Below, one piece after another: positions 49,045 through 64,000 of a DNA stretch of 64,000 nt. Position 1 is the first letter of the stretch. Each line of letters starts with the position of its first letter. Origin of the DNA: Crateriforma conspicua (GTDB lineage: Bacteria; Planctomycetota; Planctomycetia; Pirellulales; Pirellulaceae); NCBI RefSeq assembly GCF_007752935.1, contig NZ_CP036319.1, forward strand, positions 5,374,501 to 5,438,500, in the 5' to 3' direction. Both the position numbers and the translations under genes were made by a program. The notes beneath the pieces were generated by a model that worked only from the letters and a program-made list of their open reading frames with translations, was not told the DNA's origin and did not search any database.

Positions 49045-49725
49045 ATGAAGGCTGCACAACGCATGACCGAACGGCCTTCGCTTGCGATCGGAATGACCAG
49101 CTTGGTGATTTCACTGGGCTTGATATCGGTCTGCGATGCCCAGATTTTCAGTCGGCCCCGTGAACTCGGGCAACCACTGACACGCCAAGCTTCGCCGGTC
49201 GCGATGGAAGAGGTGGGTCAGATCACCGGTGCCGAACGTTTTTTGCGCGACAACCGCGATCGTGCCAGCTTTGTCGGGGCCGATCGCACCGAAGGCGGCA
49301 GTTTTGTAGGCAGCACGCAAGGCCGGACATCGGGCCGAATTCTCTCATCAACCGCGGGAATTCAACCGCCGCCTGATCGATCGGCACGTATCAATCGCCC
49401 CTTGACCGCACCACGGCGCGGACAAATGTACTTGCCAAAGCTGAATGTCGTCTTAGAACCGGTGGCTTCGGTCAGCGACCAGCGACTGGCACCGCTTCGG
49501 CCCCTTGAGACTCGGCTTCAACAGACCGTGCGCCTAGCTTCGTCATCACCGATCGAGGTGTCGGTTCAAGGCCGGACTGCCACGTTGCGCGGATTGGTTG
49601 CTTCCGAATCTGAAAAGTCGATGGCGGAAACACTGGTGCTTTTCGAGCCGGGTATTTCGACGGTGACGAATCAATTGCGGGTGACGGCGACGTCGTCAGG
49701 GATTCCCATTGATCCGTCGCGTTGA
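49045..49725 (+). CDS. Exported BON-domain protein
   Basis: A 226-residue protein with a signal segment (LAIGMTSLVISLGLISVCDAQ). A Pro/Arg-rich linker leads to a BON domain at about residues 150-215. It includes LETRLQQTVRLASSSPIEVSVQ, GRTATLRGLVASESEKSMAET and GISTVTNQLRV, the usual VxLxGxVxSxxxxxxAxxxAxxxxGVxxVxNxL pattern. BON domains bind membranes or hold periplasmic oligomers. The 3' 254 nt overlap, on the opposite strand, the end of the lipoprotein gene at 49472. The BON pattern shows this frame is coding through that overlap. Confidence 0.82.
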   Translation: MKAAQRMTERPSLAIGMTSLVISLGLISVCDAQIFSRPRELGQPLTRQASPVAMEEVGQITGAERFLRDNRDRASFVGADRTEGGSFVGSTQGRTSGRILSSTAGIQPPPDRSARINRPLTAPRRGQMYLPKLNVVLEPVASVSDQRLAPLRPLETRLQQTVRLASSSPIEVSVQGRTATLRGLVASESEKSMAETLVLFEPGISTVTNQLRVTATSSGIPIDPSR

Positions 49726-50563
49726 CTGATTCGGCAGTCGTGTTTTCCACGGGCGTCGCCATGGGAATTGCCGAACGAGAACCGGCCGGCGGCAATCGCT
49801 GTAACCCGTCAGTCGTGGCTGGACCTTCGTCCGATTGGAGCGCATCCCCGCTGCGCAAATGTCGTTGAAAATGGCTGGGCAAGGCAAGCGAATACGTTTT
49901 CATCTTGGCTTCGCGATCCCCCGTCGACGCGGTTGCATTTCCGTTTGCCGAGACATCAGTTCCCTGAAGAGTTTCGGTTTCGAATGAAACCTGTCGCACC
50001 GGCGATGGGGCTTGGGCGTTTTCTGGTGGCTCAGACGACTTGTTCGCCAAAGCCGGGGAGATTCCGGGCAACAACTTGTTCGACGCGTCGGAAATCGCGG
50101 TCCCGCCGTTGCGACCATCGAAACGCGTGATCAAGGACAATGCCTTGCTGGGGCCACCGACCTTTTCCCAAGGAATCCAGACGCTGTAGGAATCGCCAAG
50201 GTCCGACTTGCTGTGGTGTTTGGCCAGTTGTTCAGGCGTAAAGACAAACTTGCGCAGTGGTTTGGCTTGCTGGACATCCAACTGTTCGCCATCAAAAACG
50301 TACACGGTTAGCGATCCATCGACCTTGATCGGTTCGCCGCCTTCCTGTTCATAAAAGAACACTCGTCCACCGAATCCTCGAACGCCCGGCTTGCCGGGCT
50401 GATGCAACACCGTATCGGTCCAGATCGGCATCACGACTTCGGGAGTCACGGGCTTGTCTTTGCCCGGCCATTTCCAGTCAGGTTGAATCGTTGTGCAGCC
50501 GCCGACCGTCCATAGGATGATCGCCGCAAAGGTTTGAACCGACAGTCTGATTGGCTGGTTCAT
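49472..50563 (-). CDS. Lipoprotein of unknown function coupled to the secretin gene
   Basis: A 363-residue protein. The leader VQTFAAIILWTVGGC ends in a lipobox with the cysteine near residue 23, followed by a Trp-rich mature start (TTIQPDWKWPGKDKP). Its conserved-looking core (about residues 45-150) has GFGGRVFFYEQEGGEPIKVDG, VYVFDGEQLD, FVFTPEQLAKHHSKSDLGDSY and VWIPWEKVGG. The C-terminal half is low complexity. Its ATG overlaps the stop of the secretin gene (ATGA, 50560-50563), so the two are coupled. No known domain was recognised. A pilotin or T2SS accessory role is inference from position and lipobox. Its last 254 nt are antisense to the BON gene. Confidence 0.75.
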   Translation of the reverse strand: MNQPIRLSVQTFAAIILWTVGGCTTIQPDWKWPGKDKPVTPEVVMPIWTDTVLHQPGKPGVRGFGGRVFFYEQEGGEPIKVDGSLTVYVFDGEQLDVQQAKPLRKFVFTPEQLAKHHSKSDLGDSYSVWIPWEKVGGPSKALSLITRFDGRNGGTAISDASNKLLPGISPALANKSSEPPENAQAPSPVRQVSFETETLQGTDVSANGNATASTGDREAKMKTYSLALPSHFQRHLRSGDALQSDEGPATTDGLQRLPPAGSRSAIPMATPVENTTAESVNATDQWESLTTSPSPAIDSSPSKYPARKAPVFPPSTFQIRKQPIRATWQSGLEPTPRSVMTKLGARSVEAESQGAEAVPVAGR

Positions 50564-53500
50564 GGCAGCACCTCGTAATTCGGCTCGGGCAACTCGCCAG
50601 CATCGGCCGGGTCCAATCGAAAGGTATCCGGGTCCATCGGCGCGACGTTGACCGGCTGAAGGTCGGGCGTTTGTAAGACGGCATCCTGAAATTGGCTGCC
50701 GGATTCAGGAATAGCTGTTCCGGAGATTGCGGAATCAGAAATCACGGATTCCGAAATGATCGCATCCTCCAGTGATCCGGACGGATTCAGGTCGGGATAC
50801 ACCGTCGGCGGCTGTGCGGAATCCAACACATCGCTGTATTGCAATCCCGACATGTGGATGTCCCCATGCACACGGTACACGTCACATTCGCACCAGCTCA
50901 TTCGTGCGAATTCCGCTTGCTTCAGACGTTCGTTGTCGTCGGAGGAACGAATCACATGGGGTGTCAAGATCACCAACAATTCCGAGCGAAACCAGCGATC
51001 CGAATCAAACTTGAACAGATGCTTCAAAACAGGGATGTCGCTCAGGTAGGGCACTCGGCGGCGAATCGATTGTTTGTCCTCGGATATCAGCCCGCCCAGG
51101 ATGATCGTTTCGCCATTGGCCGCACTGACGGTTGCTTGCGCCGTGATGGTGTCGATCGGTGGCGAACGAATCACCGTGCCTTCGGCACCAACGGCCACAG
51201 GGACACCATCGGCTTCTTCGCCCAACTTGGACCGTTCGGCGTCAATTTCCATGACGACCATGTCGTCAGGACTGACCCGAGGTGTCACCCCCAGAATCAA
51301 ACCAACGTTTTCCAAAGTGATCGAATTGGATTGCCCGTTTTGGTTCACCGTCGATCCGATGATCCGCGGAACGCGTTGGCCGACTTGGATGAACGCGGGT
51401 TGATTGTCCAACGTTCGGATTTGCGGACGACTGAGCACGCGAACTTGTCGTGTTTCCGCCAACGCCCGCAGCAACACGCTGACGTTGCTGCTGCTGGCCG
51501 ATAAAACCAGCCCGCCAAAACCGGCTTCGGAGCTTTCACGCCCGACCGCAAAGTTGGAGATCCCTTGTCCGCCGACCACACCGGACGATTGCAGCGACTT
51601 GGCACTGCCGCTGTTGCCAAGCGGGCTGGTGTCATTGAACAGAAAACCAGGCACGTTGGTCGCCGCCTGGATAATTTCCTCGGTCACGGTGGTCACACCA
51701 CCGGGGGTCGAAAACTGGTTCGAATTGGTCGTCGTCAGCAGATCACCCAACAGGCTGCGGTCAAACAAGACGTCACTTTGCACGCCTAGTTCGACGCCAA
51801 ATTCATTGATATTGTTCAAGGCGACTTCGGCGATCAAAACTTGAATCAACACTTGTGGCGGCTGTTCATCCAGCTTGTCAATCAACGCTTTGATTTCGTC
51901 GTAATAGCGTGGTGTCGCTGCCAGAATCAATTTGTTGGCGATCGGCTCGGGGACAACGATCACTTCGTGTTCAATCTCTTGAAAGGGATTGCGTTCGCCC
52001 GGAACCGCATTTTCGATTTGGCGTTGCTCCATCAAGTATTGATTGATCGATGCGGCCACATCGACGGCCGGTGCATTCTTTAATTGAATCACCGTGCTTT
52101 TGCGTTGCTGCGTGGTGGCTTGATCCAGCCGCAACAGCAAAGCTTCGACGATTCGCAGGTCGCCTTCGCTGCCCGTGGCAATGATGCTGTTGCTGCGCAA
52201 ATCCACCGAAAACCGCAGCGGTGCCAATGATGATTCACCTTCGGCACTGGACAACTGGGGCACCGAATTCGTGCCGACTTGCGACGGCAACAACGACCGC
52301 AATGTTTGAATCATGCTGGCCGCATCGCCATTGACGATTTGAAAAATCTTCAGTTGCACTTCACTCGATGGCATGTCCAGTTGGCGAATGAGGGCTTCCA
52401 ACAGCGGAAAGTTCTCGATCGGGGACGCTATGATCAGCGTGTTGTTTCGAACGTTCGGTGTGATGCTGACCTGTTCCAATGATCCCGATTGGATCAACCG
52501 CTTGCCACCATCGTCCTGAACCTCCAATGCCAGGTTGCTGGATTGTTCGTTGATTGCTTCTTGCAATAACGTCGCGATGTCGGCAGCCAACGCATTGGTG
52601 ATTGGAAACACGCGTGTGTGCAGCACGCTGTCACCGCCAGGTTGATCCAAATCTTTGACCAACTTGGCAACCTCCTGCAGATCACGTGGCGACGCGTACA
52701 CGATCAGCGAATTGGTCCGTTGGTCGACGGCGATGTTGACGTCCGGTCCCATCGTGCCGCGTCCGGACAAGAACGTTTCGATCGTCGATCCGACGGTTTG
52801 CGCCGTAGCGTGCTGGATACGAAAAACTGCCGACTGCGAATCGGCCGAAACGGGCGTGTCTAACTGACGCGTCAACTCCATGATTGCATTGACCGCGTCG
52901 CCCCAACCGATCAACAGCAACGCGTTGGGCTTCACCAACGGCGTGACCGATACACGGCCTTGCCGACCGCTGGTCAAGTCTTGGCTTGTCTGCAAAATCA
53001 CCGATGCCACTGACTCGCTGGACGCATGTGTCAGCGGGATGATCTTGATTTCCGGCTGCGTTTCTTGGCTGATCCTTTCCAGCTGTGAAATGACTTCCGC
53101 CAATTGCTGTAGGTCGGGATCGCGGCCTCGCAAGATAATCACGTCCAAGTCGGGCAATGATTCGATTTCGACACCCTCGAATTGACGCAACACATCATCG
53201 GCTTCGTCGGTGTTTGACTGCCCCGACGCTTGCGGGTCGTTGCCTTGAGGTGTCGATTGTGCATTCTGGAATGCGACTTGGCGAATCGTTCCCCACACGC
53301 CCGCCGGCATCATCCACCGACTCTGATCGCCCGAGGCCGGTGTGACAGGCGATCGATTGACATCGCTCCGAATGGCATCGACCGTTTCACGCAAACTGGA
53401 ATGGTTTTCACGTCGAATGCGAAAGACCTGAGTTCGACGATCCAGTTCGGGTGATTCCGCAAGCTTTTGAACCAGACGTCCGGCTTGTTGCACCAACCCG

Positions 53501-54048
53501 GGTGATGACGAAATCTTGACTCCGCTGCGGACCAAGTCGAACTGCAGCGTGATCGATCGTTGGGGGTTGCGAGTTTGCAGCAGCCAAGACACGCCATCGT
53601 CGACTTGTGACGGACGCATCTGCGATCCAAAGATCTGCATCAATCCCTGTTGTACCGACTCCAAGCGGCCCCTTTCGATCGCAACGAACACGCTTTGCGA
53701 CGCTTCCTGCGGCGAACGATTCTTTGCGATCGGTTGGATCTGAGCCGTAGATTTTGGGGACATGGTCATCGTCGAATTCACCGTCATTTGCGACGACGGC
53801 AAATCCGCGCGGCGCATGAATTCCTGGACGATTCGCTGGACATCCTCCGATCCACTGATCAGCAACCGGTTGGATTCCGAATCCACAACCACTTGTGCAT
53901 CCGACTGGGGCGGCAGCAAGGGGCGCAATACTTCCGCCAGTTTCTGCGCCGGTTGATGGCGGCAGGGATGAGCGACGAATGATGATTGGGCGAAGGCAGA
54001 ACTGACCATCAAGATCAGCAGTGCCGACGCAAATGTTCCACGGAGCAT
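50560..54048 (-). CDS. gspD: Secretin (GspD/PilQ family) with about eight N-type repeats
   Basis: A 1162-residue outer-membrane secretin. A signal peptide (residues 1-20) starts at an ATG preceded by AAGGGAGACAGG. Before the channel there are about eight repeated alpha/beta N-domains, at approximately 23-85, 120-200, 207-325, 334-397, 407-469, 479-559, 567-643 and 651-728. Each has a strand-helix-strand-strand-helix outline, such as VFRIQHATAQTVGSTIETFL or VIQLKNAPAVDVAASINQYL. The C-terminal secretin domain (about 729-1033) has the signature VPYLSDIPVLKHLFK and LLVILTPHVI. An acidic tail with AIISESVISDSAISGTAIPES, partly repetitive, follows. Typical GspD has N0 to N3, so this is long. It is the outer-membrane pore of the locus. 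Confidence 0.93.
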   Translation of the reverse strand: MLRGTFASALLILMVSSAFAQSSFVAHPCRHQPAQKLAEVLRPLLPPQSDAQVVVDSESNRLLISGSEDVQRIVQEFMRRADLPSSQMTVNSTMTMSPKSTAQIQPIAKNRSPQEASQSVFVAIERGRLESVQQGLMQIFGSQMRPSQVDDGVSWLLQTRNPQRSITLQFDLVRSGVKISSSPGLVQQAGRLVQKLAESPELDRRTQVFRIRRENHSSLRETVDAIRSDVNRSPVTPASGDQSRWMMPAGVWGTIRQVAFQNAQSTPQGNDPQASGQSNTDEADDVLRQFEGVEIESLPDLDVIILRGRDPDLQQLAEVISQLERISQETQPEIKIIPLTHASSESVASVILQTSQDLTSGRQGRVSVTPLVKPNALLLIGWGDAVNAIMELTRQLDTPVSADSQSAVFRIQHATAQTVGSTIETFLSGRGTMGPDVNIAVDQRTNSLIVYASPRDLQEVAKLVKDLDQPGGDSVLHTRVFPITNALAADIATLLQEAINEQSSNLALEVQDDGGKRLIQSGSLEQVSITPNVRNNTLIIASPIENFPLLEALIRQLDMPSSEVQLKIFQIVNGDAASMIQTLRSLLPSQVGTNSVPQLSSAEGESSLAPLRFSVDLRSNSIIATGSEGDLRIVEALLLRLDQATTQQRKSTVIQLKNAPAVDVAASINQYLMEQRQIENAVPGERNPFQEIEHEVIVVPEPIANKLILAATPRYYDEIKALIDKLDEQPPQVLIQVLIAEVALNNINEFGVELGVQSDVLFDRSLLGDLLTTTNSNQFSTPGGVTTVTEEIIQAATNVPGFLFNDTSPLGNSGSAKSLQSSGVVGGQGISNFAVGRESSEAGFGGLVLSASSSNVSVLLRALAETRQVRVLSRPQIRTLDNQPAFIQVGQRVPRIIGSTVNQNGQSNSITLENVGLILGVTPRVSPDDMVVMEIDAERSKLGEEADGVPVAVGAEGTVIRSPPIDTITAQATVSAANGETIILGGLISEDKQSIRRRVPYLSDIPVLKHLFKFDSDRWFRSELLVILTPHVIRSSDDNERLKQAEFARMSWCECDVYRVHGDIHMSGLQYSDVLDSAQPPTVYPDLNPSGSLEDAIISESVISDSAISGTAIPESGSQFQDAVLQTPDLQPVNVAPMDPDTFRLDPADAGELPEPNYEVLP

Positions 54049-54303
54049 CCTGTCTCCCTTCGAGTGCGATCGGTTCACCGCATCGATGTTGATTTCTTGT
54101 CCGTCGTAACCGACGGAACACAAGATTGTGGCGTAAGAAATCCGCCCGCTTGATGTCAAGTTGACTGAGCGGACCAGTCCATTTTTCCCCTAATTTTGCT
54201 GGTTTTTCCCAGCCGAACGACGTTCAGACGCCGGAAATTTCCCCACGTGCCGGCGGGTAATCTGGTTCACTCTGGGTCAACCGCCTGCCCCGGCCGACGG
54301 ACA
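54049..54303. other. 255-nt gap between gspM/C and gspD
   Basis: Longest gap inside the T2SS-like run. It is relatively AT-rich near 54180-54200 (TTTTTCCCC, TTTTTCCC) and could hold a separate promoter for the secretin and lipoprotein genes. No consensus promoter is claimed. Confidence 0.4.
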
Positions 54304-55203
54304 TCACCCTGAACCTGTCGCTTCGGCAAGAGTTTCACCGGCGCGAACCGTGATGACCTGCCCATCAACGTCCAGCAAAACCTGGCGATCCAACACGTCG
54401 ACGACTTCGATGACGTGGGCTTCGGTTTCAACGGATTGCCCACGGCGCAGTACGCTGGTTTCGTTATCGGGCAACGAAATCCAAGCCTCTGCAACGCCAT
54501 CCGATGACACGGTCACCGCAGTCACGGTGGTTTTGGCAAGAACCGAGTCGCCGCCTCGCGAGAAAAGATTACGCCGGGCAATCGTCAAATAGTCTTGGAA
54601 CGGATCATGAGACAGACGAGTGGCCGCGTAGGGCGACAATTCCCCCTTGCGTTCGCAACGACTTAAACCAATGGCTTCGACAGCCAGCGACATGTCGACC
54701 GATCGTCCCCCACCGACCGGATTCAAACTGATTGATGAAATTTTGTGCAAATGACCGCTGCGATAAAACAGGTAAAGAAACTTGGTGACTTGTTGCAAGT
54801 TGCCACGCGCTCGAAGCGAATAGTTGTAACGAACGTAGATTTCTTTCTGCCGTTTCGAATCGCGGTCCTTGATCTTCACCGGTGCCGGTTGCGATGCATC
54901 GACACTAGCCCCGGTCATTTCGGCCTGTTGCACCAACCCCAGCAACCAGTCTTGATAAGCCGCCCGTGCCAACTCGGGATCATAGGGAAGCGAAAACTGC
55001 TCCAACACGGCCAAGACATCCGCGGCTTTGGATGTCTTGATGATGCTGTCTTGCGTTTCGGCGACTTGCCGAGTCAAACGATCCAGTTCGCGCTCGCGAT
55101 CCGCCGCTGGGCCTTCGATCAGATTTCGATATCCTGCGTCGGCCATCCAAACCAGGCCGACAACCGACATCAGGATCAGCAACAATCGGGTTCGGGCATT
55201 CAT
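54304..55203 (-). CDS. GspM/PilO-like protein with C-terminal GspC/PilP-like domain
   Basis: A 299-residue inner-membrane protein. One transmembrane helix (residues 6-24, LLLILMSVVGLVWMADAG) is followed by a coiled coil (36-65). A PilO/GspM-type ferredoxin-like region (about 75-180) includes YSLRARGNLQQVTKFLYLFYRS and ISLNP. From residue 205 a second domain begins ARRNLFSRG, then WISLPDNETSVLRRGQSV and VLDRQVLLDVDGQVITVRAGE. This resembles the HR domain of GspC and the periplasmic part of PilP (typically FR/NLF... V..G..... V..V....V.L). GspM stabilises GspL and GspC connects to the secretin. The start overlaps the end of gspL by ATGA. Confidence 0.78.
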   Translation of the reverse strand: MNARTRLLLILMSVVGLVWMADAGYRNLIEGPAADRERELDRLTRQVAETQDSIIKTSKAADVLAVLEQFSLPYDPELARAAYQDWLLGLVQQAEMTGASVDASQPAPVKIKDRDSKRQKEIYVRYNYSLRARGNLQQVTKFLYLFYRSGHLHKISSISLNPVGGGRSVDMSLAVEAIGLSRCERKGELSPYAATRLSHDPFQDYLTIARRNLFSRGGDSVLAKTTVTAVTVSSDGVAEAWISLPDNETSVLRRGQSVETEAHVIEVVDVLDRQVLLDVDGQVITVRAGETLAEATGSG

Positions 55204-56990
55204 CGTTGTGCTCCCCCGTTTCCAGCGGATGCTGAATCGATCACCTGAGTTTCGGACGTCGTCGCTTCGTCTTCCCCACCGGTTGATTCATCGGACTTTG
55301 CTTCTGCCGCACCGTCATCGGATTCCGTTGGCATTTTGGTATCACTGGGGGACCTTGGTATCTGCGATTCGTCATTTGCGTCGGATCCATGTTGTGACTC
55401 CGATGATTGCGGATCGACACTTGGCGGACGCTCTGGATTCTCGACCGGCCGCAGCGGACGTCGCTGCGGCTGAAACGTCACTCGAGTCTCGAAAGCCCAA
55501 TCCAATTCTTTAGAATCACCAACCTCACTGACACGCTTACTGCTAACGCTGTGACGATCGTCCCGAATCGCGGCTTCCAGTTCCGTCACAATTTCGGGCG
55601 ACCTGACTTGCAGACTCAAGTCAAACACGCCCGTTCCATCGGAGGCGGACTGGGCCGAAAACCGTCGCACCAAGGCCAAATCCTTGGCCGGAAGTCGATC
55701 GGAAAGGTCTTTGATTTCGTCCAGCCAGATCACTTCACCCGAACGCCAGGATGCCACGGCGTTGACGATGTCCTGAAGTTCCATCGCTTTGTTGGCACGG
55801 CCGCCCAATTTTTTCAGCGTCTCGCGTTTCGTTTCGATCTGATCCAATTGCTCGCTTCGGTCTTGCCAGGCAAAGTAGCCCAGCATCAACAGAAGAGAAG
55901 CGGCGACACCGCCCCATATCGCGTAGCGACGATAGGGACTCGGTTGACGTGGCGGACGTTTGGGCGAAACCAAGTTCACGGCCGGCGATTCAAAATCAGC
56001 ACCAAGAAGATGGCCAATCGCATTGACATTCTCCGTCCATCGCCCCTGGGCATCATCGGGGCAAGCGAGCATTCGATCGGGTTCCAACACCGAAACATCA
56101 CAATCCAGTGCACCGGAGATATCCTTGGCAGCGTCGCCAAAGATCTCCTGGTCGCCCAGCAGCCAGACCGCCATCGCCGGGTCGTCTTCGTCGCTTAAAT
56201 AGGCCGCCGTGCGTTGCAGTTCCGACGCAAGGACCGGCGCCAGTCGTTCCCGGAGATCCGTGCCCCGCTGGATGGTTCGCATCAATACCGGACGGTGATT
56301 TTTGACGACCACCAGTTCGGTCTTCGAATGTGTGCAACTGACACCGATCGACAAACCCGATGTCGCCGATTGCTGGTCCAGGATGTTTGTGATCCCCAAA
56401 CCAGCGTACGTCGCCGACTCCAGACGCAAACCGGCTTGTTTGTACTCATCCCGCCAGGCTTGCAGTTGGCTCGTCGTGCAAGTTACCGCATGGACCAATT
56501 CGCCGTCGGCCTGGGAATCGGATGCTCCCATCAGAAAATCGACTTCGCGCGGGGTCCCGTCATCGGTTTCCTGCATCACCATGGCGGCAACCATCTCTGG
56601 CAACTCATGGTCGTCGGCCGACGGTAAGTTCCCCGTGATGATTTCGACGTCCGGTCGTGTCAACAACAGGGTGACCGACGAAGCTCGCAACTTGTGCTGG
56701 TCCAAAAACTGTCGCACCAACTTTGCATCCGAAACGTTGCTGGTGTCCGGCGTTTCCGTATCGGCAACGGGCGCGTCGGCGGATGAATCGGAGTCGTCGT
56801 CCGTCGGATTGTCCGGTGGGTCCAGCCGACATCGCTGCAAAATTTTCGGCGGATGCTGACTGCGGTCGATCACCAAAACGTTTGCGACTTCATCACTGGC
56901 ATCCACGACCACCGAAAGCGTGGAACGTCGTGGTCGTTGCTTTTGAAACAGGTTCACGGCACGTGACTCTTTCTGATGTTGCTGATTCAT
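55200..56990 (-). CDS. gspL: GspL / PilM-PilN-type assembly protein
   Basis: A 596-residue protein of the type II secretion inner-membrane platform. Residues about 25-345 have the actin-like cytosolic fold seen in GspL/PilM (STLSVVVDASDEVANVLVID, LELQR helix, AVWLLGDQEIFGDAAK). One membrane helix is at about residues 356-374 (YAIWGGVAASLLLMLGYFAW). A periplasmic coiled coil and ferredoxin-like region (about 375-510) is followed by a Ser/Asp/Glu-rich tail of about 80 residues. ATG 56990 (MNQQHQKESR) replaces a longer spurious frame. It sits between gspK (22-nt gap) and gspM/C (ATGA overlap). Confidence 0.83.
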   Translation of the reverse strand: MNQQHQKESRAVNLFQKQRPRRSTLSVVVDASDEVANVLVIDRSQHPPKILQRCRLDPPDNPTDDDSDSSADAPVADTETPDTSNVSDAKLVRQFLDQHKLRASSVTLLLTRPDVEIITGNLPSADDHELPEMVAAMVMQETDDGTPREVDFLMGASDSQADGELVHAVTCTTSQLQAWRDEYKQAGLRLESATYAGLGITNILDQQSATSGLSIGVSCTHSKTELVVVKNHRPVLMRTIQRGTDLRERLAPVLASELQRTAAYLSDEDDPAMAVWLLGDQEIFGDAAKDISGALDCDVSVLEPDRMLACPDDAQGRWTENVNAIGHLLGADFESPAVNLVSPKRPPRQPSPYRRYAIWGGVAASLLLMLGYFAWQDRSEQLDQIETKRETLKKLGGRANKAMELQDIVNAVASWRSGEVIWLDEIKDLSDRLPAKDLALVRRFSAQSASDGTGVFDLSLQVRSPEIVTELEAAIRDDRHSVSSKRVSEVGDSKELDWAFETRVTFQPQRRPLRPVENPERPPSVDPQSSESQHGSDANDESQIPRSPSDTKMPTESDDGAAEAKSDESTGGEDEATTSETQVIDSASAGNGGAQR

Positions 56991-57012
56991 GCTGTCTACA
57001 TCTGCGACCTTG

Positions 57013-58392
57013 TCACCGAACCGACAAGACGCTCCAACGCGTTTTTCCCCACGATGCGTCCACCAGGACACGACACCGATACGTTGGACCGTGCTGTCCC
57101 AATCGTCCGACCACGGTCACTTTCACGACGTCGCCGCCCACCGTCAGATAGGGCAATGCCGTGTCGACAACCGTCGCGGACAGACCACTTGACGCCAGCG
57201 CGGCGATCGGATGCACCCAGCCATTGGAATCGGACGACCGAGCGTTGACGATTGCGCCGGCCGATGTCGTATCCAACCCAGGCACCACGGCAAGCACCTC
57301 CACTGGTGCCGTGGCGACATCGACACGACCGACCAAGCGACGTGCGGATGTCAGCGTCAATTGATCCAGCAACCGCGCCACATCCAACCCTGCTGCACCG
57401 TTGACGCGATCGATCGGACTCGCCACGGTTTGCCGCTTCCGATTCGACTCCGAAACGGACACCGAGCTATCAAAGAGTTCGGTCAGACTTTCAAATCGAT
57501 AGATCGAGCGGCGGTTCAGATCCACGTTGACCGAATCAAGTGGTGTATTGGCGGACGATGTTTTATTGATGCCATGTTGTCGCGCCAGCACAATAAAGTT
57601 TGCCACCGGCAAAGGCACCCGCTTGCTAAGTTGTTGATGCAACTGTGTCAGCGAGTCCGCATTGATGTTGATGCGTGGCAATCCTTCAAAAGTCTCGTTT
57701 CTTTCGGCGCTGCACATCGTCACCCAGGTTCGCCAAGCATCGCTCGGGTTATCGGAATCGGATGACAAATCGGACGTATGCTGCGGCAGCAATTCAACGA
57801 TCGCGGGTCCATCGTCCACGGGCTTGCCAGAATTCCGGGTCGGTCGTCCAAGACTTTGCAGAATGTCCGCCGCCGTTTCCGCCGTCATCCCAGGAAGTCG
57901 AAGCAGACTTTGCTGTAAAGAATCTGGGCTTGGTGATCCACCTGGTCCTGAAGATCGCAAGTTCAACTTGGCCGATTCGGTCAACAACCGTTGTGAAGGT
58001 TCGGATCCGCTGGCGTTTGGTCCCTGATACACCACAGCCTGAAGCTTCCAATCCGATTTGTCGGCGGCATCGGTATCGTCGGGCCAAAGATCAATTGGTT
58101 GGTTGATCGGTAAGGTGTCAGCCAGTCTTTGGCTACGTGGGCGTTCCATGATGGACGCCAAGACTTCGACGACGGAAAACGCGGCTTGGCGACAAGCCAA
58201 ACGGTCACCACCGTTTCGAGTCGCCAGATGCTCGGACTCCATCGACAAGGTGAAGTTGTAAGCCGCCAAGCTGATCAAAATTACAATCACCAACACAACG
58301 ATGATGACCGTCCCTTGCCTTGATGGAGGTCCCAAAACCTTTGCCGAACGCGTGGAAAGTGAAGCCAAGCTCTTCACGGCAGGTCCCCCCAT
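57013..58392 (-). CDS. gspK: General secretion pathway protein K (GspK-like minor pseudopilin)
   Basis: A 459-residue protein. The prepilin leader ends RQG-TVIIVVLVIVIL at about residue 27; as in other GspK proteins the E5 residue is lacking. The hydrophobic helix (about 28-48) is followed by helix-hairpin-helix-like regions: LLRLPGMTAETAADILQSLG and VEVLAVVPGLDTTSAGAIVNAR. GspK sits at the tip of the pseudopilus with GspI and GspJ. Length is above the usual 300-330 residues because of insertions. It overlaps the end of gspJ by 19 nt. Confidence 0.8.
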   Translation of the reverse strand: MGGPAVKSLASLSTRSAKVLGPPSRQGTVIIVVLVIVILISLAAYNFTLSMESEHLATRNGGDRLACRQAAFSVVEVLASIMERPRSQRLADTLPINQPIDLWPDDTDAADKSDWKLQAVVYQGPNASGSEPSQRLLTESAKLNLRSSGPGGSPSPDSLQQSLLRLPGMTAETAADILQSLGRPTRNSGKPVDDGPAIVELLPQHTSDLSSDSDNPSDAWRTWVTMCSAERNETFEGLPRININADSLTQLHQQLSKRVPLPVANFIVLARQHGINKTSSANTPLDSVNVDLNRRSIYRFESLTELFDSSVSVSESNRKRQTVASPIDRVNGAAGLDVARLLDQLTLTSARRLVGRVDVATAPVEVLAVVPGLDTTSAGAIVNARSSDSNGWVHPIAALASSGLSATVVDTALPYLTVGGDVVKVTVVGRLGQHGPTYRCRVLVDASWGKTRWSVLSVR

Positions 58393-59549
58393 TCGTTCGC
58401 ATCGGGATGCACTGACTGCTGAGAATCGTCGACGGTTTTCGTTGCCGCTTGGCTGAGAGCAATGACCCAGCGAACGGGCTGATCTCCCAAAGCCGCGACG
58501 ATGCCCTCTTCGGCTTCGGTCTCGACAGAAACGTCCTGCGACGCAACCAAAGGATCCGCCGAATCCGATGCAAAGACGTCTTGGTCATTGGACCATTCGT
58601 CATCGGGTCCGATCACGACTTCATCCGATGCGACATCTCCATCGTCCGGCGTTTCCGGATCCTGCGATTCAATCACATCGACGGTCACCGCCAACGCACG
58701 TGGATATCCATTGCGAACGGACGATTCCCACCGACTTCGCCAGACCTGCCCGTCAAAAAACTGGAACTGACAATCAGCGATCTCAGGGACCATATCCAGC
58801 TGTCGATCACGTTCGGCTTCTTGTTCAACCGAATCGTCCGTCAAGTCGGCCGGGCCGATGGTCATAAAATCGTCTGCGTCCAAAGCCAATTGCCGGCGGC
58901 CGGAATCCACGCCTTCGATTGCTTCGAACAATTCCGCCGAATCAAGAAAGCTGTCCCAAGATTCGACAACACGCACGATCCCCAGTCGTTGGATTCGACC
59001 CGACGATGCTTCCAACAGTCCTGTATCGGCCTCCATGGCGTCGATTTCCATCGCTTCGTCCCCACGGACATCGCCACCGTCGTCTGACACTAGCAATTCG
59101 TCATGGCCGGGCAAATCGGCAGCCGTTGCGGGGCGATACGTTACCAAGCGAACGACATGACCCGCAGCATCGGAACGTCGCTGAACAATTGCAAAGCAAA
59201 TCCGTTGTCGGTCCCCCGAAAAATATCCGTTGTGAATGCCGTCATCTGCAAAGCCACCGTCTTGAAGATTTGCCGTGGGCAAGGAACGGTCGACGTCACA
59301 CGGCAGCAACCGGACCAGGTCATCACGCATCTGGCGATGAAAAGATCGGATCAAAGACACTCGGTTCGCAGCATTAACACCTTTGTTTTCCAGCTTGGTA
59401 TAGATTCCAAAAATCGACCACACCAACAGCATCAGAACTGAAACCAGGGTCATGGCGATTACGGTTTCCAACAACGTAAACCCACACTTCGCCGCGACAA
59501 TGCCCCCAGGCTTCAATGGATGACGATCCGGTGCGATGGACGGTTTCAT
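58374..59549 (-). CDS. gspJ: Minor pseudopilin GspJ
   Basis: A 391-residue prepilin-like protein. A long 23-residue leader ends in KCG, then FTLLETVIAM with Glu at position 5, and the hydrophobic helix ends near residue 48. The globular part has the RSLIRSFHRQMRDDLVRLLP-like region and FQFFDGQVWRSRWESSVRNGYPRALAVTV, which fits GspJ. Two insertions are strongly acidic (around DDEWSNDQDVFASDSAD and the GDEAMEIDAMEAD stretch). That makes it much longer than the typical 200 residues. Its start overlaps the gspI stop (ATGA). Confidence 0.83.
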   Translation of the reverse strand: MKPSIAPDRHPLKPGGIVAAKCGFTLLETVIAMTLVSVLMLLVWSIFGIYTKLENKGVNAANRVSLIRSFHRQMRDDLVRLLPCDVDRSLPTANLQDGGFADDGIHNGYFSGDRQRICFAIVQRRSDAAGHVVRLVTYRPATAADLPGHDELLVSDDGGDVRGDEAMEIDAMEADTGLLEASSGRIQRLGIVRVVESWDSFLDSAELFEAIEGVDSGRRQLALDADDFMTIGPADLTDDSVEQEAERDRQLDMVPEIADCQFQFFDGQVWRSRWESSVRNGYPRALAVTVDVIESQDPETPDDGDVASDEVVIGPDDEWSNDQDVFASDSADPLVASQDVSVETEAEEGIVAALGDQPVRWVIALSQAATKTVDDSQQSVHPDANEWGDLP

Positions 59550-59986
59550 CCGCTTGCCCCCGGGTGATCACCGGCGCGCATCCATCGCACCAGTTCAAAG
59601 GTGGGGCGTGCATCCAACTCGGACTCGGTCAACTGCGACGCGGCGGCCATCGCATTATCCTGAACGGACACATTTGCGAAGACTCGGATTCGAACACGAC
59701 GCACGCCGGGATAATCGGTCTCCGCCACCTCCGCTTCATAGTCCCAGCCCGGGTGGCCGGGGACCGGTGATCGTTCAACGCTATCAACCGATACGGGGTC
59801 AATTACCCATTGGTCGACCAAATCGTGGCAAACGATTTGGCCCCAAGCCCGTCGCTCGCTGCGATCCTGGTGCTTCGATCCCACCGCGATCAGTCGCAGC
59901 AGGATCATCGAACTGGTGACCAAGATCACGGTGGAAACAATCACTTCCAACAACGAAAACGCATCGGTTGTCGAACGCCGAATCAC
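59546..59986 (-). CDS. gspI: Minor pseudopilin GspI-like, Ala at the cleavage site
   Basis: A 146-residue prepilin-like protein. The leader is MIRRSTTDA followed by FSLLEVIVSTVIL: Glu 5 and the hydrophobic helix are normal, but the -1 residue is Ala rather than Gly. The C-terminal part (WDYEAEVAETDYPGVRRVRIRVF) forms a short globular domain as in GspI. It overlaps gspH by ATGA and gspJ likewise overlaps it, so the whole block is translationally coupled. Confidence 0.8.
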   Translation of the reverse strand: MIRRSTTDAFSLLEVIVSTVILVTSSMILLRLIAVGSKHQDRSERRAWGQIVCHDLVDQWVIDPVSVDSVERSPVPGHPGWDYEAEVAETDYPGVRRVRIRVFANVSVQDNAMAAASQLTESELDARPTFELVRWMRAGDHPGASG

Positions 59987-60762
59987 GTCGAAAAATCCCA
60001 GCCTGTGGTGGGAATCAAATCATCAGCCGAATCAATCACTGCGGATTCGGGAAGCGTGGATTGGAACTCGGTCTCCACCGACGGGTCGACTGACAGATCG
60101 TCTTGTTCCAGCACCATCGCCGAATCTCGTTCGATGTCGCCAATGGTGACGTCACCGGTCAGTGCGCGGACGGTCAACACGACCATCTCTTGGGTGTCCG
60201 CACTGCCCAAGCGAATCTGTGCTGCGGACCCTCGACCGTCGGGGAAAAACGCGATGGTTTGTGATGAATCCGCTTCGACATCCGAAACATCGTCGGTCAC
60301 AGCGGACACATCCAAGATTGATTCCTCGATGTCGTCCGATTCAACCGACGCAATCGTCACAGGTTCAGGTAACGAGTGCTTCACGCACTGCCCGCCGTTC
60401 AAACTGTATTCGGTATCCGCCGATTCGGCGATCGATTCGTTCGCGACCGATTCAAAACCGTTTGATTCACCCGACACCACCGAAATCATCAAACTTTCGT
60501 CCGCTGAATCGGCCGAACGAAGATCCGTGGTTGCGATGACAAACTCGGTGCCGTTCTGTTGGAACGAAAAGCTGGAACGTTGGCCGGTACGCACCGCTCG
60601 GTCGCGTGCCTCGGCTAAACCGGCTTTCACCTGCAGCGCCGCTTCACGCAGCACCGCACGATTGGCAGCCCGCCGCATCCGAGGCCAAGACATTCCCATC
60701 ACCGCCACCATGATCGACAGAACGATGATCAACTCCAGCAAGGTGAAAGCGCGATGGTTCAT
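59983..60762 (-). CDS. gspH: Minor pseudopilin GspH-like, Ala at the cleavage site
   Basis: A 259-residue prepilin-like protein with a very short leader, MNHRA, followed by FTLLELIIVLSIM. Position -1 is Ala, as in the neighbouring gspI product. The start of the mature region (MRRAANRAVLREAALQVKAGLAEARDRAV in parts) is the GspH-type amphipathic helix, and the core ends in FFPDGRGSAAQIRLGS. Between them lies a roughly 100-residue Ser/Asp/Glu-rich insertion (residues about 85-170). Its start overlaps the gspG stop (ATGA). Confidence 0.82.
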   Translation of the reverse strand: MNHRAFTLLELIIVLSIMVAVMGMSWPRMRRAANRAVLREAALQVKAGLAEARDRAVRTGQRSSFSFQQNGTEFVIATTDLRSADSADESLMISVVSGESNGFESVANESIAESADTEYSLNGGQCVKHSLPEPVTIASVESDDIEESILDVSAVTDDVSDVEADSSQTIAFFPDGRGSAAQIRLGSADTQEMVVLTVRALTGDVTIGDIERDSAMVLEQDDLSVDPSVETEFQSTLPESAVIDSADDLIPTTGWDFST

Positions 60763-61304
60763 AAGGCGTCCCCTGTGTCGAAGGACATATCGGTGGACAT
60801 TGAATCGCCGGAGTCAAAACTGTCGCCCGAATCCATCGTTCCCATTTCACCGTCTTCGCCATCTTCGGTGGCACGCCAGTTGACGATGTCATCTTCGGTG
60901 TCGGGTTCACCGTCCAAACCGGGTGAAGAAATATTGGGGAAGTCACGACCACCTTGTGTCGGCGGATACTCATAAACAAATGCATTTCCCCAAGCGTCCG
61001 CCGGAATGACTTCATCATCCAAGTACGGACCATCCCACTTGCGTGCCTTTGCTTCGTCGGCAGGTGGTTTGATCAGGGCCGCCAAACCGTCCTCGGTGCT
61101 GGGGAAGGTCCGCATGTCCACTGCATAAAGTTTTAAAGATGCTTCCAGGTTCCCCAGTTGCGCCTTGGTGCTCTTGATATCCGCTTTCTTCTGAGTCCCC
61201 AGCAATCGCGGTCCCGCGATTGCGAACAACATCACCAAAATCACCAAGACGATCATCAGCTCAATCAGCGTGAAACCGACGCGAATACGTTGATGACGTT
61301 TCAT
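60759..61304 (-). CDS. gspG: Major pseudopilin GspG with acidic C-terminal extension
   Basis: A 181-residue major pseudopilin. Leader MKRHQRIRVG precedes FTLIELMIVLVILVML, with Gly at -1 and Glu at +5. The conserved body is KADIKSTKAQLGNLEASLKLY, DMRTFPSTEDGLAALI, WDGPYLDDEVIPADAWGN and the calcium-binding-type loop LDGEPDTEDDIVNW. GspG polymerises into the pseudopilus that pushes substrate through the secretin. After the usual end there are about 36 more residues, Asp/Ser/Gly-rich (DSGDSFDSGDS ... SFDTGDAL). The start 61304 is fixed by an AAGGA site; ATGs at 61313 and 61343 are rejected. Confidence 0.93.
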   Translation of the reverse strand: MKRHQRIRVGFTLIELMIVLVILVMLFAIAGPRLLGTQKKADIKSTKAQLGNLEASLKLYAVDMRTFPSTEDGLAALIKPPADEAKARKWDGPYLDDEVIPADAWGNAFVYEYPPTQGGRDFPNISSPGLDGEPDTEDDIVNWRATEDGEDGEMGTMDSGDSFDSGDSMSTDMSFDTGDAL

Positions 61305-61312
61305 TGCATTCA

Positions 61313-61317
61313 TCCTT
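61313..61317 (-). promoter_or_regulatory. Ribosome-binding site deciding the gspG start
   Basis: AAGGA on the minus strand with an 8-nt spacer to ATG 61304; the ATG at 61313 overlaps this site and cannot use it. Confidence 0.75.
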
Positions 61318-61348
61318 CGAACAGAGAAATTGATTGTGGGCATGTTTC

Positions 61349-62572
61349 TTAATCCAACGCCGTGTTCATATCGAAAACGGGCAACAACACCGCGACGATG
61401 ATGAACATCACCATCGCCCCGATGATCAATAACATCAGTGGCTCAATCAGACGCACCATTGCATCCAATTTGCGTTCGGTTTTCTCATCCATCCGATCCG
61501 CGATTTTGACCAGCACGGAATCCAAAGAATTGGATTCTTCCGCCACTCGCATCATCGCCATCACCTGGGGCGGAATCAGACCGCTGGCGGCCAGCGGCGC
61601 CGCAAGCGAATTTCCGGATGAAATGTTTTCGGACGCTTTCTGAATCGTTTCCGCCAACAAGACGTTGCCCGTCGATGTGCTGCTGATGTCCAGCGATTTC
61701 AGCAGCGGGACGCCGTTGCGTAGCAGTGTCCCCAAAACGCGGCAGAACCGAGAAACTGCCATGGAATGAAAGATCGATCCGGCGATCGGAATCTTTAGCT
61801 TTAGCCGATCCAGAACACGTCGGCCTTTGGGGGTCCCCACCGCTCGTCGCAACATCACGACCACGCCCGCAGCGGCGATTAAGACCAACACGCCGAAGCG
61901 TACCAGCGAATGACTGAGAGCCAAAAGCACGACGGTCGCCAGTGGTAAACCGGCACCACTGCGTTGAAGTCGTTCAAAGAACGGTTCGAACATCGGTACG
62001 ACGTACATCACCAGCACCACGGTGACGATGCCACCGACCACCATCAAAACGATGGGGTAGGTCATGGCACCGGAAACCTTGCCGCGAATCGCATCCTGCT
62101 TTTGTAGGAAGCCGGCGACGTGTTGCAACGATTCCTCAAGGAACGCACCTTCCAACCCCGCGCGGACCATGCTGACTACCAATTCGGAAAACACCTTGGG
62201 GTGTGCCGCAAGTGCCTCATCCAAGTTCTCTCCATCAGCAACGCGATCACGAACGTCGGCCAAAACATCCGCCATCGTTTCGTCGGCACTCTGTTCGGCC
62301 AGAATCGTCAGCGATTCCAACAGCGTGACGCCGCCGTTCAACAAATCGCTTAACTGTGTCAGCGTGTCGGCGATCGTTTCCGCTTTGACCCGCTTGGGCA
62401 AATCCAACTTCCATTCGAAGGCCCCGGTTCGGGCGGACCGGTCGATCACTTCGATGGGAAACAAAGCCTGGCGACGTAACAACGCCATCGCTTCGCGGGC
62501 GTCACCCGCGATGATCGTTCCGTCGGCGTTGTCACCGCCGGCGGTTTTTGCACGATAAGCGAAATTAGGCAT
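61349..62572 (-). CDS. gspF: Type II secretion inner-membrane protein GspF
   Basis: A 407-residue platform protein of the inner membrane. The typical N-terminus MPNFAYRAKTAGGDNADGTI is followed by two homologous T2SSF domains. The first is around residues 65-190 (LTQLSDLLNGGVTLLESLTIL, then MVRAGLEGAFLEESLQHVAGFL). The second is around 270-390 (FCRVLGTLLRNGVPLLKSLDI, MMRVAEESNSLDSVLVKIAD). Hydrophobic helices are near 170-190, 220-240 and 375-400. GspF links the ATPase GspE to the pseudopilus base. The gap to gspE is 60 nt. Confidence 0.95.
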   Translation of the reverse strand: MPNFAYRAKTAGGDNADGTIIAGDAREAMALLRRQALFPIEVIDRSARTGAFEWKLDLPKRVKAETIADTLTQLSDLLNGGVTLLESLTILAEQSADETMADVLADVRDRVADGENLDEALAAHPKVFSELVVSMVRAGLEGAFLEESLQHVAGFLQKQDAIRGKVSGAMTYPIVLMVVGGIVTVVLVMYVVPMFEPFFERLQRSGAGLPLATVVLLALSHSLVRFGVLVLIAAAGVVVMLRRAVGTPKGRRVLDRLKLKIPIAGSIFHSMAVSRFCRVLGTLLRNGVPLLKSLDISSTSTGNVLLAETIQKASENISSGNSLAAPLAASGLIPPQVMAMMRVAEESNSLDSVLVKIADRMDEKTERKLDAMVRLIEPLMLLIIGAMVMFIIVAVLLPVFDMNTALD

Positions 62573-62632: not shown

Positions 62633-64000
62633 TCAGGCGTCGGCTTTGGTGACACGCAAGACTTCATCAATCGATGTGACACCTTGCATGACTTTGTTCC
62701 ACCCGTCGTGGCGGAGCGTCTTCATGCCGCCGCGAACGGCGGCTTTCTTGATTTCATTGCTGGCCGCTTGGTTGGTTGCCAAGTCACGGATTTCGTCATT
62801 GGCGACCAGCAATTCGTACAGGCCCATCCGGCCGCGATATCCGCTGCCGCGACAGGCCGAACATCCAACGGGACGGTAGACCACCGTGCCGTTTTCCTTG
62901 GCCTGCTCATAAGGAAAATCGTCGGGCAAATCCGCTTGGCGACACAGATCGGGTTCGCGACAATCCGGACACAGTTTGCGTACCAACCGCTGCGCCATCA
63001 CGCCTTCGACGGTGCTGCTGACCAGAAACGGTTCGACGCCCATGTCACACAATCGCATGAACGCGCCGGCGGAATCGTTGGTGTGCAGGGTACTGAAAAC
63101 CAAGTGACCCGTTAGCGAAGCCTGTGTGGCGTTTTCGGCGGTTTCCAAGTCGCGAATTTCGCCAACCAGAACGACATCGGGATCGTGCCGCAGGATGCTC
63201 CGCAGGCTGGCCGCAAACGTCAGCCCGACCTTCTTGTGCACTTGGATCTGGTTGATCCCTTCCAGCTGATACTCGATCGGATCTTCGGTGGTGATGATCT
63301 TGGTTTCTTCGTCCTGGATCTCACTGAGCGCGCTGTAAAGCGTCGTTGTTTTTCCCGACCCCGTCGGCCCCGTCACCAAGATGATCCCGTGTGGCAATCG
63401 GATCAATTTTTGAAAGCGTTGATAGACGTCATCGGGCATCCCGATGTCGGCGAGTGAAAACCGCAAATTTTCCTTGTCCAAGACCCGCATGACGATTCCT
63501 TCGCCGTGCAGCATCGGGATGATTGAAACGCGAATGTCGACTTCGCGTCCTTTGACGCGGATCTTGATTCGACCGTCTTGGGGGACACGCTTTTCCGCAA
63601 TGTTCAATCGCGCCATGATTTTCAGCCGGCTGACAATCGCCGACCGAAATTGATTCATCTCCGGCGGTGCCGGTTGACGCTGCAGAACACCATCAATCCG
63701 ATAGCGGATTTTGATGCCTTTTTCTTGAGCCTCGATGTGAATGTCACTGGCGCGTGCTTCGATGGCTTCGCTGAGAATCTCGTTGACCAATCGCACCACG
63801 GAGGCTTGCTGGGCGACTTCCGCATCTTCCAGATCTTGCCCGGTCAACGAATTCAGTTCACCCAAGTCCTCGTCTTTCTGCAGTGCCAGCAAACCGTCGA
63901 TCGTTTCGGCACCCACGCCCAGAAAACGCTTGATCAAATCGCGGACTTGCTCCGGATCACTAACGACCGGTTGGATGATTTGCCCAGTCGCAGCGCTCAA
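62633..64000 (-). CDS. gspE: Type II secretion ATPase GspE, 5' end beyond window
   Basis: The frame continues past the right edge, so the true start is not visible; the TTG at the edge is not claimed as a start. 455 residues are present. They include the end of the N1E region (LIKRFLGVGAETIDGLLALQ in parts), the N2E domain (RASDIHIEAQEKGIKIRYRIDGV), Walker A GPTGSGKT, the Asp box and Walker B ILRHDPDVVLVGEIRD, the His box STLHTNDSAG and a zinc-binding Cys pair set (LCPDC ... GCSACRGSGYRGR). It powers pseudopilus assembly on the cytoplasmic side. The operon continues upstream outside the window. Confidence 0.95.
   Translation of the reverse strand: MSAATGQIIQPVVSDPEQVRDLIKRFLGVGAETIDGLLALQKDEDLGELNSLTGQDLEDAEVAQQASVVRLVNEILSEAIEARASDIHIEAQEKGIKIRYRIDGVLQRQPAPPEMNQFRSAIVSRLKIMARLNIAEKRVPQDGRIKIRVKGREVDIRVSIIPMLHGEGIVMRVLDKENLRFSLADIGMPDDVYQRFQKLIRLPHGIILVTGPTGSGKTTTLYSALSEIQDEETKIITTEDPIEYQLEGINQIQVHKKVGLTFAASLRSILRHDPDVVLVGEIRDLETAENATQASLTGHLVFSTLHTNDSAGAFMRLCDMGVEPFLVSSTVEGVMAQRLVRKLCPDCREPDLCRQADLPDDFPYEQAKENGTVVYRPVGCSACRGSGYRGRMGLYELLVANDEIRDLATNQAASNEIKKAAVRGGMKTLRHDGWNKVMQGVTSIDEVLRVTKADA

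What the first reader, a model, noticed from the sequence alone, without database searches (positions are those of the whole stretch)
54304..55203. GspM/PilO-like protein carries a GspC/PilP-like C-terminal domain; no separate gspC in the operon
The gene in the gspM position has an N-terminal helix, coiled coil and PilO/GspM-like part, then a second domain from residue 205 beginning ARRNLFSRG. That domain contains the short-strand pattern typical of the GspC HR domain and PilP. A free-standing GspC is missing between gspE and the lipoprotein gene, and this fusion would supply its function. It suggests an inner-membrane platform where the GspM- and GspC-type functions are on one chain.
Basis: partly seen in the sequence, partly recalled or inferred. 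Interest (0 to 1): 0.68.

Follow-up and report, generated by a model that had tools for sequence, protein, structure and literature searches.

The report
GspM protein fused to GspC domain
In this planctomycete's protein-secretion machine, two parts that are usually separate proteins (an inner-membrane scaffold piece and the connector that reaches to the outer-membrane pore) are made as one chain, and relatives across the family share this, which fixes the ratio of the two parts at one to one, a ratio still argued about in other bacteria.

Summary
The 299-aa gene at 54304-55203 (-), in the gspM position of a T2SS-like operon, has two periplasmic domains. AlphaFold2 on 29 orthologues (pLDDT 86.9) gives a PilO/GspM ferredoxin-like domain (residues 73-181; PilO Z 11.4) and a C-terminal beta-sandwich (222-289) whose best solved matches are GspC HR (Z 8.5, 63 of 65 residues) and PilP (Z 8.2). 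Profile comparison links it to stand-alone planctomycete HR proteins (96.4%; reversed control 0.4%). In 23 of 23 loci picked by gspE, PilO and HR share one ORF after gspL. About 45 of 149 family genomes carry the compact form; about 130 carry a longer paralogue. No separate gspC lies in this operon, but the genome has one in a different T2SS. In several other planctomycetes the HR gene stands alone after gspM, so this looks like a fusion of neighbours. PilO-PilP fusions are already reported in type IV pili: new variant of a known kind. Docking of HR on a secretin N-domain is inferred. The operon's own secretin shows no N0, the usual partner; a giant repeat protein beside gspE has one.

The parts
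54304..55203 (-). fused gspM-gspC(HR) gene, 299 aa
54994..55197 (-). residues 3-70: N-terminal transmembrane helix continuing as a long helix
   Evidence: AlphaFold2 secondary structure; hydrophobic stretch seen in sequence
54661..54987 (-). residues 73-181: PilO/GspM ferredoxin-like domain
   Evidence: PilO 2rjz_A Z 11.4, rmsd 1.9 over 96; PulM 8a9x Z 7.4; EpsM 1uv7 Z 7.1
54553..54591 (-). residues 205-217: linker with R-N-x-F motif (R211, N212 and F214 invariant in 29 orthologues)
54337..54540 (-). residues 222-289: GspC HR / PilP-type beta-sandwich
   Evidence: 3oss_C Z 8.5, rmsd 2.0 over 63 of 65; 2ivw Z 8.2; 4wfw Z 7.1; 7oio Z 6.7; 6hcg_e Z 6.1; hhalign
55200..57071 (-). gspL position (PilM+PilN-like by position), overlaps the fusion gene by 4 bases
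   Evidence: synteny in 20 loci; no family match on its own
50560..54159 (-). gspD secretin, 1199 aa, with extra Secretin_N repeats; no N0 detected
49472..50563 (-). lipoprotein gene conserved next to the secretin
   Evidence: lipobox seen in sequence; synteny; paralogue beside another secretin
57013..58392 (-). gspK
   Evidence: NF037980 E 1.2e-10
58374..59549 (-). gspJ
   Evidence: T2SSJ E 3.1e-5
59546..59986 (-). gspI
   Evidence: TIGR01707 E 2.3e-4
59983..60762 (-). gspH
   Evidence: TIGR01708 E 7.2e-10
60759..61343 (-). gspG major pseudopilin
   Evidence: TIGR01710 126.8 bits, over the cut-off
61349..62572 (-). gspF
   Evidence: TIGR02120 E 6e-100, below the cut-off
62633..64000 (-). gspE, runs past the window end (full gene in L001:1134-2861)
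   Evidence: T2SSE E 1.3e-141, MshEN E 1.3e-17

Best explanation
The gene encodes a GspM/PilO-type inner-membrane platform protein with a GspC/PilP-type HR domain joined to its C-terminus. The single N-terminal helix anchors it in the inner membrane, the PilO-like domain pairs with the periplasmic part of GspL, and a linker of about 40 residues carries the HR domain outward to bind an N-domain of the secretin or of a secretin-related protein. One chain thus does what GspM and GspC do together, in a fixed 1:1 ratio. Shown here: two domains, their folds (predicted), conservation in one ORF, no separate gspC in the operon. Inferred: membrane topology, pairing with GspL, docking of HR on an N-domain, and the secretion function.
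For: Predicted folds match PilO and GspC HR/PilP separately and at good confidence. Profile comparison of the fused HR with stand-alone planctomycete HR proteins gives 96.4%, and with the longer-form HR 98.4%; reversed and unrelated controls give 0.4% or less. The paralogue's C-terminal part matches NCBIfam GspC (NF041515, E 4.7e-4, below its cut-off). In 23 of 23 planctomycete loci chosen by gspE that extend past gspL, one ORF carries both domains and no other HR ORF was found. Compact form in about 45 of 149 family genomes, longer form end to end in about 130 of 149. In three other planctomycetes a separate HR gene follows gspM (L036; L039 and L040 also show gspD next), the place expected for a fusion of neighbours. 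HR, PilP and OutB domains bind secretin N-domains (PMC3169554, PMC9239104, PMC3724824).
Against: The folds are predictions; identity to solved structures is about 10-13%, and Z values near 8 are only moderate. No binding or secretion data exist. The fused protein lacks GspC's own membrane helix and any PDZ or coiled-coil tail, so only the HR part of GspC is represented. The operon's secretin shows no N0, the usual HR partner. A separate GspC exists in the genome and could in principle serve this system.
Confidence: 0.75

Rival explanations
1. The machine is closer to a type IV pilus, and the gene is a PilO-PilP fusion of the kind already known, in a T2SS-like operon.
For: PilO is the best fold match; PilO-PilP fusions are reported, e.g. 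in Pseudomonas putida (PMC3169554); gene order L-[M+HR]-D mirrors pilM-N-O-P-Q; the paralogous system's GspL matches Amuc_1101 PilM-like.
Against: GspG scores over the T2SS cut-off, and F, D, H and K best match T2SS models. HR and PilP share a fold, so the domain alone cannot decide.
Confidence: 0.3
2. The HR domain here is a structural leftover; the free GspC of the genome's other T2SS serves this operon as well.
For: A separate gspC exists at 1120.4-1121.1 kb.
Against: That gene lies in its own K-C-L operon with its own secretin, ATPase and GspF. The fused HR is conserved across the family, with W241 and G289 invariant. PF11356 found a free gspC over its cut-off in only 6 of 149 family genomes, though that model missed the one here.
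Confidence: 0.1
3. The C-terminal domain is an unrelated small beta-barrel that only looks like HR.
For: Low sequence identity; no Pfam match above cut-off.
Against: Every PDB chain listed for this region is HR, PilP or GspB/OutB; profile match with controls.
Confidence: 0.05

Closest known systems
PilO-PilP fusions of type IV pili (e.g. Pseudomonas putida Q88CU9, reported in PMC3169554)
   Same: Same two domain types on one chain.
   Different: There in a type IV pilus system; here in an operon with T2SS-type GspG, GspF and GspK, lineage-wide, and with a paralogue carrying a cadherin-like insert. The P. putida entry itself was not examined here.
GspC (PulC/OutC) of type II secretion systems
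   Same: HR domain fold and inferred role of linking the inner-membrane platform to the secretin.
   Different: GspC has its own membrane helix and often a PDZ or coiled-coil tail (own knowledge); here HR hangs on GspM.
GspM/XpsM and PilO
   Same: N-terminal membrane helix and ferredoxin-like periplasmic domain.
   Different: Standard GspM/PilO end after this domain; here about 115 residues with an HR domain follow.
GspB/OutB
   Same: Another T2SS protein with an HR domain on a membrane-anchored chain (4wfw Z 7.1; PMC9239104).
   Different: No PilO-like domain; OutB carries a peptidoglycan-attaching tail.

Membership tests
GspM/PilO | N-terminal membrane helix followed by ferredoxin-like periplasmic domain | tested here: met
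   (PilO Z 11.4; PulM, EpsM listed); predicted structure
GspM/PilO | curated family score above cut-off | tested here: not met
   XpsM-type GspM 24.8 bits against a cut-off of 60
GspC | HR domain fold | tested here: met
   3oss_C Z 8.5, 63 of 65 residues; hhalign with controls
GspC | free protein with its own N-terminal membrane helix and linker ahead of HR | tested here: not met
   HR is attached to the PilO-like domain in one ORF
GspC | HR binds the secretin N0 domain | not testable with these tools
   no binding assay; no N0 found in the operon's GspD, N0 present in the neighbouring giant protein
PilO-PilP fusion | PilO domain then PilP/HR domain on one chain | tested here: met
PilO-PilP fusion | encoded in a type IV pilus cluster | tested here: inconclusive
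   GspG over the T2SS cut-off, GspD and GspF best on T2SS models but below cut-off; no tree made
Type II secretion system | set of E, F, G-K, L, M, D genes in one operon | tested here: met
[quoted passage not shown]
   no functional data

The most novel reading that the evidence does not exclude
In these fused systems the secretin's N0 domain has moved off the secretin onto a giant, barrel-less protein of N0 plus up to about 29 N1-type repeats encoded next to gspE; the HR end of the GspM-GspC fusion docks on that protein, which acts as a long periplasmic extension between platform and pore.
Probability: 0.2. Interest if true: 0.75.

Novelty: new variant of a known kind. Interest (0 to 1): 0.48.

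Why it matters
How many GspC copies sit on each GspM is unsettled: purified Klebsiella complexes gave PulC to PulM of 2:1 (PMC6882859), while PilO-PilP fusions were used to argue for 1:1 (PMC3169554). A family-wide GspM-GspC fusion without a separate gspC in the operon is a natural 1:1 machine that can be tested. It may also explain why annotation models that treat gspC as mandatory (PMC6668835) would miss such planctomycete systems.

Tried and rejected
Pfam and PDB sequence searches with the protein or the 29-sequence profile gave no usable match; weak Pfam hits (Fer2_4, Cupin_2) were taken as chance. PF11356 alone was first read as 'no gspC in the genome'; a family-specific profile corrected this. 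PilP PF04351 gave no match over cut-off in 149 family genomes, but its control genomes also gave none, so this says little. A simple rule 'fused GspM-GspC goes with loss of N0 from GspD' was rejected: in L092 GspD and the giant protein both have N0. The N0 profile misses N0-like stretches in two other secretins of this genome (an STN match in one by Pfam; by eye in the other), so absence of N0 in the window's GspD is a search result, not proof. Fusion-like C-termini in more distant planctomycetes (L061-L064, L066-L069) look like HR by eye but gave weak support against the fused HR set (15.1% and 1.9%), so they are not counted.

Full report
What is there. The window ends inside a T2SS-like operon on the minus strand: gspE (running past the window end), F, G, H, I, J, K, L, the gene in question, gspD and a lipoprotein gene. 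The gene of interest, 54304-55203, is 299 aa; its ATG overlaps the gspL stop. Family libraries see only a weak GspM match over residues 8-145 and nothing usable for the rest.

Two domains. I collected relatives from the same taxonomic family and aligned 28 of them with the window protein (32-56% identical, all spanning both parts). AlphaFold2 on this alignment gave mean pLDDT 86.9: helix 3-70, a ferredoxin-like domain 76-180, a linker, and a seven-stranded sandwich 226-287. Compared with solved structures, residues 73-181 match PilO (Z 11.4, rmsd 1.9 over 96) and more weakly PulM and EpsM. Residues 222-289 match the HR domain of GspC (3oss_C, Z 8.5, rmsd 2.0 over 63 of 65 residues), PilP (Z 8.2), GspB/OutB (7.1), LspC (6.7) and PulC HR (6.1); no unrelated fold is listed for that stretch.

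Independent sequence support. A profile of the fused HR aligned with a set of stand-alone HR proteins from other planctomycetes, themselves found with PF11356, at 96.4% over 84 columns including the R-N-x-F motif. Reversed, N0, cadherin-like and PilO controls gave 0.4% or less. The paralogue's C-terminal part also matches an NCBIfam GspC model (E 4.7e-4, below its cut-off).

Conservation. The compact fusion is present end to end in about 45 of 149 family genomes (my count). A paralogue in a second operon of the same genome (L032) has PilO, the motif, a cadherin-like insert and HR in one 394-aa chain. A profile of that form matches 143 of 149 family genomes, about 130 end to end (my count), and longer forms of about 600 aa occur in another family of the class. 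For a sample not chosen by this gene, I fetched named genomes by gspE: 23 of 23 planctomycete loci that extend past gspL carry PilO and HR in one ORF and no other HR ORF. Named relatives are Rubripirellula, Pirellula and other Pirellulaceae, which places the window in or near that group by inference.

Is gspC missing? In this operon, yes: nothing between gspE and the lipoprotein gene, and upstream of gspE is a 2433-aa repeat protein. In the genome, no: PF11356 finds nothing, but a profile of family GspC proteins finds one at 1120.6-1121.0 kb, inside a third operon with genes in the order D-E-F-G-J-K-C-L. Six of 149 family genomes show such a free gspC over the Pfam cut-off.

Origin. In planctomycetes of other families, separate HR genes follow gspM: L036 (L-M-HR), L039 and L040 (L-M-HR-D). 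The order mirrors pilM-N-O-P-Q. A fusion of neighbouring genes is the simplest account; I made no tree, so the number of events is open.

How it probably works. By analogy with PulC, OutB and PilP, whose HR domains bind secretin N-domains (PMC3169554, PMC9239104, PMC6882859; in Myxococcus PilP binds the Secretin_N region, PMC3724824), the HR end of this chain should hold the secretin end of the machine while the PilO end sits in the platform with GspL. This forces one HR per GspM. Klebsiella complexes were measured at two PulC per PulM (PMC6882859), whereas 1:1 was argued from PilO-PilP fusions (PMC3169554).

An open point on the partner. N0 is the usual HR partner. I found no N0 in the operon's GspD by Pfam, by a profile from the giant proteins, or by profile comparison, although these tests miss some divergent N0 domains. 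The giant protein upstream of gspE does have one: its predicted N-terminal region matches PulD N0-N1 (Z 13.6 over 157) and N0 alone (4jtm, Z 11.9), followed by about 29 N1-type repeats and no barrel. It lies next to gspE in many relatives, and in this genome a shorter one also lies before a second gspE-gspF pair (L140). Whether HR binds it is untested.

Novelty. PilO-PilP fusions are on record (PMC3169554). I found no paper describing the GspM-GspC counterpart in planctomycetes in the open-access library searched, which does not prove that none exists. I rate it a new variant of a known kind.

Noticed in passing
L001:3226-10527 (-), genome 5439225-5446526, just outside the window: A 2433-aa protein with an N0 domain and about 29 N1-type Secretin_N repeats but no secretin barrel lies directly upstream of gspE and is syntenic in many relatives; a shorter one also precedes another gspE-gspF pair in the same genome (L140).
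   Followed up: partly
window 50560-54159: The operon's secretin GspD is 1199 aa with extra Secretin_N stretches (6-8 in the family members scanned) and no detectable N0.
   Followed up: partly
L032:9233-16610: Second T2SS-like operon (G-H-I-J-K-L-MC) about 80 kb before the window; its MC protein has a cadherin-like insert between PilO and HR. A giant-E-F cluster (L140) and a secretin with lipoprotein (L129) lie elsewhere and may belong to it.
   Followed up: partly
L139:8356-9075 (genome 1120.4-1121.1 kb): Separate GspC in a third T2SS operon of the same genome, missed by PF11356.
   Followed up: partly
window 49472-50563 and L129:3061-3933: Related lipoproteins (RGFGGRxFF motif) beside two secretin genes: candidate pilotin.
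   Followed up: no
G000 whole genome: Seven secretin barrels and about 14 T2SSE-type ATPases over cut-off in one genome.
   Followed up: no
L061-L064, L065-L069: In more distant planctomycete families, GspM-like proteins of 333-559 aa end in what looks by eye like an HR domain, suggesting still wider or repeated fusion.
   Followed up: partly
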